A stretch of 64,000 nucleotides of DNA. Origin: Haloplanus salinus (GTDB taxonomy: Archaea; Halobacteriota; Halobacteria; Halobacteriales; Haloferacaceae). Positions 391 through 1,907 of this stretch are shown piece after piece; positions within the stretch are counted from its first letter, which is position 1; every line of letters begins with the position of its first letter. Where the stretch lies: assembly GCF_003336245.1 (NCBI RefSeq), contig NZ_QPHM01000001.1:2608113-2672112 (forward strand), written 5' to 3'. The position numbers and the translations under genes are program-made. Under the pieces are notes generated by a model. The model was not told the origin of the DNA. It ran no database searches and saw nothing but the letters and a program-made list of their open reading frames with translations.

Positions 391-1425
391 ATGAGTCAGG
401 ACGCGTCCACCGACGGCGACCTCCGGAACACGGGACTGTCCCTCAAGCACGACCGGGAGTGGGATTACGAACTCGACCGCATCGTCGACGCGGTCGAGGA
501 ACGGAACGCCACGAAGGTCGGCCTCCAGTTCCCCGAAGGGCTGAAACGCCGCGGCCCCGCCGTCGCCGACGACCTTCGCGCGCTCACCGACGACGACGTA
601 ACCTACATGCTCTCGGGGCAGCCGTGTTACGGCGCCTGCGACCTCGACACCTACCTCATGCGCCGGACGGACGTGTTCGTCCACTTCGGCCACTCGCCGA
701 TGAAGGAGTCGGACAAGATCATCTACGTCCCCCTGTTCTCGAACGTCGACCCATTCCCGATGATGGAGGACGCCCTCGACGAACTCCCCGAGGAGGACGT
801 GGGTCTCGTCACGACGGCCCAGCACATGAACCGGTTCGAGGAGATGAAAGAGTGGCTCGAATCGGAGGGCTACTCCGTCCACACCCGGAAGGGGGACGAC
901 CGCCTCACCCACGAGGGGCAGGTGCTCGGCTGTAACTACGCTTCGGCGGACATCGACGCCGATCAGGTGCTCTACGTCGGTGGCGGCAAGTTCCACCCGC
1001 TCGGCCTCGCCATGGAGCATCCGGACAAGAAAGTCGTCATCGCCGACCCGGTCAACAACGTCGTCACCGTCGCGGACACGGAGAAGTTCATGAAACAGCG
1101 CTACGGCGCCGTCCACCGCGCGATGGACGCCGAGAAGTGGGGCGTCATCTTCTGTACGAAGATCGGTCAAGGGCGCTGGGAGATGGCGGAGGAGATAGTC
1201 AACGAGAACGACGACGCCTACCTCATCACGATGGACGAGGTGACGCCGGATCGCCTCCGCAACTTCGACATGGACGCGTTCGTCAACACCGGCTGCCCCC
1301 GAATCACGACCGACGACGGCCCGCAGTTCCACAAGCCGATGCTCACGCCGGGCGAGTACCGCATCGCCGTCGGCGACGAACCCCTCGACTCGCTCTCGTT
1401 CGACACCTTCCACGGTACCTGGTAA
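391..1425 (+). CDS. dph2: Dph2, 2-(3-amino-3-carboxypropyl)histidine synthase (diphthamide biosynthesis)
   Basis: The 344-residue product is an archaeal Dph1/Dph2-family enzyme. It makes the first modification of the diphthamide histidine of elongation factor 2 using SAM and an unusual [4Fe-4S] cluster. The three expected cluster cysteines are visible: C83 in YGACDL, C181 in LGCNYAS and C302 in NTGCPRIT, one per repeated domain. The ATG at 391 is chosen because the frame upstream has non-haloarchaeal, basic composition, and the length fits the family. It is monocistronic; the next 480 bp downstream hold no gene. Confidence 0.93.
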   Translation: MSQDASTDGDLRNTGLSLKHDREWDYELDRIVDAVEERNATKVGLQFPEGLKRRGPAVADDLRALTDDDVTYMLSGQPCYGACDLDTYLMRRTDVFVHFGHSPMKESDKIIYVPLFSNVDPFPMMEDALDELPEEDVGLVTTAQHMNRFEEMKEWLESEGYSVHTRKGDDRLTHEGQVLGCNYASADIDADQVLYVGGGKFHPLGLAMEHPDKKVVIADPVNNVVTVADTEKFMKQRYGAVHRAMDAEKWGVIFCTKIGQGRWEMAEEIVNENDDAYLITMDEVTPDRLRNFDMDAFVNTGCPRITTDDGPQFHKPMLTPGEYRIAVGDEPLDSLSFDTFHGTW

Positions 1426-1460
1426 TGGTGCTGTTGCGATTAGTGCGATTGGATTAGGGA

Positions 1461-1826
1461 CACCTCGAAAGCCCCGACTCGCTGGAGTCGGGGCCTCGCT
1501 GCGCGCGCTCCCTGCGGTCGCGTGCTTGCGTCACCGGGAGAGCTCCGCTCTCCCGAGCTCACGGCGGCGGAGCCGCCGTGAACGGCCGCCTTCCTCCAGC
1601 GAGTCGCCCCTTTCAGTCCCGCCCGGCGGCGGCCGGTCGGCCAGCCGATGCGGGTGGGACTGAAAGGGGCCGGCGTCTCGGCGTGCCTGGACGACGCAAG
1701 CACCGCAACACAGTGAGGAGCGTGGTTCGAGAGAGCTTCGCTCTCTCGTCATCACGAAAGACGCCCCTGGCGTCTTTCGAACGACAGCGAGTCCTGGGAG
1801 CCGAGACGCCGGGGGCTTTCGAGGTG
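1461..1826. repeat. 366-bp nested inverted-repeat element
   Basis: The region between dph2 and trmO is bounded by a perfect 15-bp inverted repeat (1461-1475 with 1812-1826). Inside, 1476-1484 pairs with 1785-1793, 1522-1532 with 1693-1703, and the centre is a 15-bp perfect (about 20-bp imperfect) stem, 1606-1620 with 1656-1670. Extra hairpins branch off each arm: 1471-1494, 1535-1555, 1559-1581, 1728-1748 and 1755-1779, all perfect stems of 8 bp or more. No plausible protein is encoded. It could be a MITE-like mobile element, a repeated intergenic palindrome or a structured RNA; the function is unknown. Confidence 0.8.
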
Positions 1827-1907
1827 GTTACAGATTCGAATGCTTATCTCAACACTACCCCTGGTAATCGCGGCCACGCTTTTCCCCCCGCCTCCCCTCG
1901 CTCCGCC

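What the first reader, a model, noticed from the sequence alone, without database searches (positions are those of the whole stretch)
1461..1826. Large nested inverted-repeat element between dph2 and trmO
A 366-bp region has a perfect 15-bp terminal inverted repeat, further nested arm pairings and a 15-bp (about 20-bp with a G-T pair) central stem, with five extra perfect hairpins branching from the arms. The overall fold is a branched cruciform. It has no coding capacity. It could be a MITE-like element, a structured RNA or a nucleoid/replication-associated palindrome.
Basis: seen in the sequence. Interest (0 to 1): 0.65.

Follow-up and report, generated by a model that had tools for sequence, protein, structure and literature searches.

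The report
Non-autonomous transposon carrying paired structured motifs
The big nested palindrome is a small gene-less jumping element of salt-loving archaea, and its inside is two mirror-image copies of a folding motif that is scattered through most haloarchaeal genomes and that I could not find described anywhere.

Summary
The palindromic structure is real and far beyond chance (RNA-fold z = -16). The true unit is 1427-1859 (433 bp). Its ends match those of IS6-family insertion sequences in the same genus. It is flanked by a 9-bp duplication (CCTGGTAAT), and a related genome has the empty site between dph2 and trmO. Seven copies lie in this genome and others throughout the genus. It is therefore a MITE moved in trans by an IS6-type transposase.

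The inside is two head-to-head copies of one motif, "M": GTGGGACTGAAAGGGGC - stem - GACGCAAGCACCGCA...GAGGAGCGCAGCGAG - stem' - GGGGCTTTC. M has strong compensatory covariation: 26 of 31 pairs change on both sides and 96.8% of cells pair, while shifted controls give 33-49%. It also occurs singly, in other mobile backbones and on plasmids. It is absent from Rfam and from the papers searched. What M does is not shown. I favour a fold recognised on one strand, probably as RNA, over a purely DNA-level palindrome.

The parts
1418..1426 (.). left copy of the target-site duplication CCTGGTAAT (contains the dph2 stop codon TAA)
   Evidence: direct reading; empty site in L159; TSD script
1427..1859 (.). 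complete MITE, 433 bp
   Evidence: ends match other copies and IS6-family termini
1427..1460 (+). left outer end, GGTGCTGTTGCGATTAG..., 'alpha' type
   Evidence: alignment of copies; same first ~17 bp as full IS6 elements of the genus
   Evidence: the repeat finder I6
1467..1622 (-). M motif, copy on the minus strand (54.9 bits)
   Evidence: covariance model R1
1535..1555 (.). small perfect hairpin nested in the left M
1559..1581 (.). small perfect hairpin nested in the left M
   Evidence: the repeat finder I14
1606..1670 (.). central hairpin formed by the facing 5' ends of the two M motifs
   Evidence: the repeat finder I3; fold
1654..1820 (+). M motif, copy on the plus strand (84.8 bits)
   Evidence: covariance model R1
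1728..1748 (.). small perfect hairpin (first of a two-hairpin module)
   Evidence: module stands alone at G000:C3:259975
1755..1779 (.). small perfect hairpin (second of the two-hairpin module)
   Evidence: the repeat finder I10
1812..1826 (-). right arm GGGGCTTTCGAGGTG
   Evidence: the repeat finder I6
1827..1859 (-). right outer end, reverse complement GGTAGTGTTGAGATAAG..., 'beta' type
1860..1868 (.). right copy of the target-site duplication CCTGGTAAT

Best explanation
The feature is a 433-bp non-autonomous element (MITE) of the IS6 (IS240) insertion-sequence family, inserted at the 3' end of dph2 just before trmO. Shown: its ends match those of full IS6-family elements in the same genus; it is flanked by a 9-bp duplication; a related genome has the uninterrupted site; and there are about seven copies in this genome and many in the genus. 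Inferred: an IS6-type transposase supplied in trans moved it. Shown: the cargo between the ends is two head-to-head copies of a haloarchaea-wide motif M, whose helices change sequence from copy to copy while staying paired, around conserved unpaired blocks; this head-to-head arrangement produces the nested cruciform. Inferred, less certain: M is kept by recognition of its single-strand fold, most likely as an RNA read on the GGGACTGAAAGGGGC strand, and the MITE is one of several vehicles that spread it.
For: Copies: 26 partial matches at about seven places in the own genome and in 125 of 148 family genomes. Ends and duplications: 14 of 31 copies with recognisable ends have a repeat of 7 bp or more at the junction, against 13 of 930 mismatched flank pairs; examples GTCCTAGG (L029), GTGACCGT (L069), GAAGCCAG (L072), CTTCGAGT (L085). 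Full IS6-family elements (691-698 bp, PF13610; 211-aa open frame in L178) with GGTRCTGTTCAGATTAGCTG / GGTAGTGTTCAGATAAGGAT ends and 8-bp duplications in six loci. Empty site in L159: CACCTGGTGAGCGCGGCCACGC. Flanking genes Diphthamide_syn and TrmO_N. M: RNAalifold 31 pairs, 19 double-changed; covariation score 0.488 against shuffles 0.130 +- 0.011, 0/500; on 123 further copies 0.561 against 0.141 +- 0.006, 96.8% paired against 33-49% when slid. Test not biased by a model: 83 interiors chosen only by their flanking bases pair 10.4 of 11 terminal positions, 6.1 when partners are swapped. Strand: G-U 104 against A-C 21 cells; 27 against 13 in the unbiased set.
Against: In this genome the only IS6 element with matching ends is broken (L035/L067), so present mobility here is not shown. 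The TSD is 9 bp here, while the full IS6 elements show 8; other copies vary 8-10. Not all copies have a TSD. No transcription evidence for M. The G-U excess falls away when the few pairs richest in G-U are dropped, A2 was fitted to the model, and cell counts are not independent events. M shows no clear orientation relative to neighbouring genes, which an RNA acting in transcripts might show. DNA-level palindrome correction could also make stems covary.
Confidence: 0.8

Rival explanations
1. M is only a DNA palindrome: a selfish hairpin kept perfect by template switching or gene conversion between its arms during replication, with no recognised RNA or protein-bound fold.
For: Stems are nearly perfect and differ in almost every copy (79 distinct arm sequences among 83). 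Smaller perfect hairpins with 3-base loops are nested inside. Interiors are lost exactly between short direct repeats, as expected of replication slippage. No orientation bias to genes.
Against: Template switching would also erase the internal loops, yet GGG/GGG and AAGCACC/GAGGAGC are conserved across the class. The G-U over A-C excess suggests one strand matters. Orthologous M copies at the Natrinema endA locus keep pairing while the stem changes.
Confidence: 0.35
2. The element is a functional nucleoid-, replication- or regulation-associated palindrome specific to the dph2-trmO locus.
For: Extreme predicted stability; it lies between two housekeeping genes.
Against: Other genomes of the genus lack it at this site (61-66 bp between dph2 and trmO) and copies lie at unrelated sites.
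Confidence: 0.03
3. M is a guide-RNA scaffold (omega-RNA) of IS200/IS605-TnpB elements or their PATE remnants.
For: It is structured and its 3' end is followed by less conserved sequence.
Against: No TnpB or TnpA match at E 1e-6 in 80 loci of up to 8 kb around M (only one query of each was used). Flanks show IS6-type ends with duplications, which IS605 elements and PATEs do not make.
Confidence: 0.04

Closest known systems
Haloarchaeal MITEs as defined for Haloquadratum walsbyi (PMC3119063)
   Same: Non-coding, under 500 bp, inverted terminal repeats and target duplication matching a known transposon, sometimes without an intact transposase in the genome.
   Different: The core here is two inverted copies of a class-wide structured motif; the paper does not describe such a core in the passages read.
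IS6/IS240-family insertion sequences of the same genus (PF13610)
   Same: First ~17 bp of both ends (GGTACTGTTYAGATTAG / GGTAGTGTTYAGATAAG) and 8-bp-class target duplications.
   Different: The MITE has no transposase; its interior is unrelated to the IS.
SMR-A short mobile repeats and PATEs (PMC3119063)
   Same: M is short (about 100 bp), imperfectly inverted-repeat-ended, often nested in other mobile elements, and loses its core by deletion between short repeats.
   Different: SMR-A copies are nearly identical in sequence, while M stems differ in almost every copy; PATEs lack terminal inverted repeats and target duplications.
Integron attC sites (from general knowledge, not tested)
   Same: Conserved short ends and a conserved single-strand fold with a variable stem.
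   Different: No integrase link was looked for or seen; M has conserved internal loop sequences.

Membership tests
MITE | multicopy, short, no transposase gene | tested here: met
   433 bp; about seven copies in the own genome, many in the genus
MITE | terminal inverted repeats shared with a known transposon | tested here: met
   ends match IS6-family elements of the genus
MITE | target-site duplication of the partner transposon's length | tested here: met
   9 bp here, 8-10 bp elsewhere; IS6 partners 8 bp; 14/31 against 13/930 null
MITE | empty site in relatives | tested here: met
   L159, also L166 and L167
MITE | mobilisation in trans by the partner transposase | not testable with these tools
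   needs an experiment
PATE / IS605 derivative | no terminal inverted repeats, no target duplication | tested here: not met
   TIR and TSD present
SMR-A | terminal repeats unrelated to transposons and no target duplication | tested here: not met
   for the whole element; M alone was not tested for target duplications
known Rfam RNA family | match above gathering score | tested here: not met
   only sub-threshold hits for the window (best E 0.005), none for five related loci
structured RNA (new) | compensatory covariation around conserved loops | tested here: met
structured RNA (new) | transcription | not testable with these tools
   no expression data available
TnpB omega-RNA | tnpB next to the scaffold | tested here: not met
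   no match in 80 loci at E 1e-6

The most novel reading that the evidence does not exclude
M is a previously undescribed class of structured nucleic acid (probably RNA), found in most Halobacteria at up to dozens of copies per genome, which travels both alone and as inverted pairs inside several unrelated mobile backbones and sits beside a conserved plasmid noncoding region and an OB-fold protein gene.
Probability: 0.45. Interest if true: 0.75.

Novelty: new variant of a known kind. Interest (0 to 1): 0.58.

Why it matters
As a MITE the element is ordinary. Its cargo is not: a covarying motif present in most sampled Halobacteria, absent from Rfam and from the papers searched, and repeatedly re-packaged in different mobile elements. 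If M is an RNA it would be one of the commonest structured RNAs of the haloarchaea with no known function. If it is only DNA it is a clear natural case of palindromes kept paired while their sequence turns over. Either way the covariance model and the exact loss events make it testable.

Tried and rejected
Rfam search of the window region and of related loci: nothing. Literature search for the motif's own letters: no paper; searches for haloarchaeal IS6 MITEs and interspersed palindromes gave nothing closer than PMC3119063. Virus link: no match in the phage records nor in 2.9 million viral contigs for the full or closed form of M (exact patterns only). TnpB guide scaffold: no TnpB/TnpA near M. 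3'-UTR or terminator role: orientation to upstream genes about even (23: 18 among those called), to downstream genes 31: 18, not decisive. M as one domain of the conserved plasmid noncoding region: most plasmids carry that region without M, so M is an optional neighbour.

Full report
OBSERVATION. The repeat finder gives the 15-bp perfect arms 1461-1475/1812-1826, the central stem 1606-1625/1651-1670, the two arm stems and the small hairpins. As RNA, 1440-1850 folds at -271.9 kcal/mol against -188.1 +- 5.1 for shuffles, z = -16.3. The fold is a four-way junction: outer arms, left-arm stem, central hairpin, right-arm stem, with small perfect hairpins on the side arms.

IT IS A MITE, LARGER THAN REPORTED. 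A search of the own genome found further copies at about seven places, two of them identical to each other over 354 bp. Aligning copies shows that similarity continues outside 1461-1826 to GGTGCTGTTGCGATTAG... on the left and ...CTTATCTCAACACTACC on the right. The element is therefore 1427-1859. CCTGGTAAT stands on both sides (1418-1426, 1860-1868). In the related genome of L159 the dph2 stop is followed directly by GCGCGGCCACGC, the uninterrupted site, and L166 and L167 also lack the insert; 61-66 bp separate dph2 and trmO there. The genes are Diphthamide_syn and TrmO_N. Over 31 copies with recognisable ends, 14 have a junction repeat of 7 bp or more, against 13 of 930 pairs made from different copies.

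PARTNER. PF13610 (DDE_Tnp_IS240) elements of 691-698 bp in the same genus have ends GGTRCTGTTCAGATTAGCTG and GGTAGTGTTCAGATAAGGAT and 8-bp duplications in six loci. These are the same two kinds of end (alpha ...GATTAG, beta ...GATAAG) that the MITE carries, in alpha/beta, alpha/alpha (L070, L078) and beta/beta (L079) combinations. In the own genome the element with matching ends is broken, a situation also reported for a Haloquadratum MITE (PMC3119063). Mobilisation in trans is inferred, not shown.

THE CARGO IS TWO COPIES OF ONE MOTIF. The right half of the element and the reverse complement of the left half follow one plan: GTGGGACTGAAAGGGGC, stem, GACGCAAGCACCGCA, variable loop, GAGGAGCGCAGCGAG, stem', GGGGCTTTC. 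I call it M. A covariance model (R1) built from 35 M sequences, mostly from other genomes, finds both copies in the window: 1654-1820 (+), 84.8 bits, and 1467-1622 (-), 54.9 bits, and nothing else in 64 kb.

M IS UNDER A PAIRING CONSTRAINT. On the MAFFT alignment, 19 of 31 predicted pairs have changes on both sides, 96.5% of cells pair, and the covariation score is 0.488 against 0.130 +- 0.011 for shuffles. On 123 further matches it is 0.561 against 0.141 +- 0.006, with 26 of 31 pairs double-changed; sliding the partners drops pairing from 96.8% to 33-49%. That alignment is fitted to the model, so I also took 83 distinct interiors selected only by their flanking bases: their first and last 11 bases pair at 10.4 of 11 positions on average, against 6.1 when partners are swapped (maximum 6.5 in 200 swaps), with 79 different arm sequences. 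Internal loops (GGG/GGG; AAGCACC/GAGGAGC) stay conserved. Among non-Watson-Crick cells, G-U exceeds A-C by 104 to 21 and by 27 to 13 in the unbiased set, which points to the GGGACTGAAAGGGGC strand. A few pairs carry most of that excess, so I treat it as a hint.

DISTRIBUTION. In a phylum-wide sample the 29 genomes with matches (of 197) are all of the window's own order. Pattern hits in named genomes are all haloarchaeal. M occurs as inverted pairs (20 of 75) or singly; in a second IS6-like MITE in Halorhabdus (L246, duplication ATTCTTTC); in ~300-bp repeats of Halorubrum and Halolamina; and next to genes in Halobacterium. Names of unlabelled genomes are inferred from identical plasmid coordinates. 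Rfam and literature searches found no description.

LOSS EVENTS. At the Natrinema endA locus some species carry M and close relatives carry ...GGGACTGAAAGGGGCTTTC..., the same site with the interior removed between the two GGGGC (or longer) direct repeats (L310 against L420, L421, L425, L432). The closed 19-mer occurs 27 times in 23 of 391 Halobacteria genomes; the reversed control pattern never. Slippage between short repeats flanking a hairpin explains this without an enzyme. It resembles the repeat-mediated core deletions described for PATEs (PMC3119063).

MECHANISM, COMMITTED. Shown: MITE anatomy, partner family, empty site, two M copies, class-wide covariation. Inferred: movement by an IS6 transposase in trans (about 0.9); M kept as a recognised single-strand fold rather than as plain DNA palindromes (about 0.55-0.6), more likely as RNA than as single-stranded DNA. 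The function of M remains open.

LIMITS. No transcription data, no tree-aware covariation test, copy numbers are lower bounds, model E-values are rough, and the phage/virus negatives rest on one distant search and exact patterns. An earlier count said the OB-fold gene is next door in every annotated record opened; the correct count is 11 of 12 (L108 is the exception).

Noticed in passing
L116:2530-2950, L463:3501-3905 and 25 loci of alignment A3: A ~420-bp strongly conserved noncoding region lies divergently next to an RPA-like OB-fold 'DNA-binding protein' gene on haloarchaeal plasmids: 164 plasmid records match (includes partial matches); the gene is adjacent in 11 of 12 annotated records opened (L108 is the exception; in L463 it is called hypothetical). 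RNAalifold: 111 pairs, G-U 178 against A-C 9, 14 pairs double-changed; nothing in Rfam. Possibly an undescribed plasmid RNA or origin; M sits 3' of it in a minority.
   Followed up: partly
L310, L420, L421, L425, L432 (Natrinema endA locus); L082, L098; L436-L462: The interior of M is lost exactly between its GGGGC direct repeats in several lineages, including short copies of the window's own MITE family.
   Followed up: partly
G000:C1:1058720 and G000:C1:1782056 (L028, L027): Two copies of the MITE are identical over 354 bp, suggesting recent movement or gene conversion.
   Followed up: no
window 1728-1779; G000:C3:259975-260015 (L033): A two-hairpin module (GTGGTTCGAGAG..CTCTCGTCATCACG..CGAACGAC) is nested in M here and stands alone elsewhere; stems differ but stay perfect. 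Small hairpins seem to be inserted into larger ones.
   Followed up: no
L105, L106, L266-L275 (Halorubrum-type genomes), L262-L265 (Halolamina): M forms the 3' part of a ~300-bp repeat with its own conserved 5' part (GGTGGCGCG..GGCTGGGGAGGYGTGAGGTGCGG); in L105/L106 a TTATAAAAGG box precedes it. Thirty or more copies per genome in Halorubrum-type genomes.
   Followed up: no
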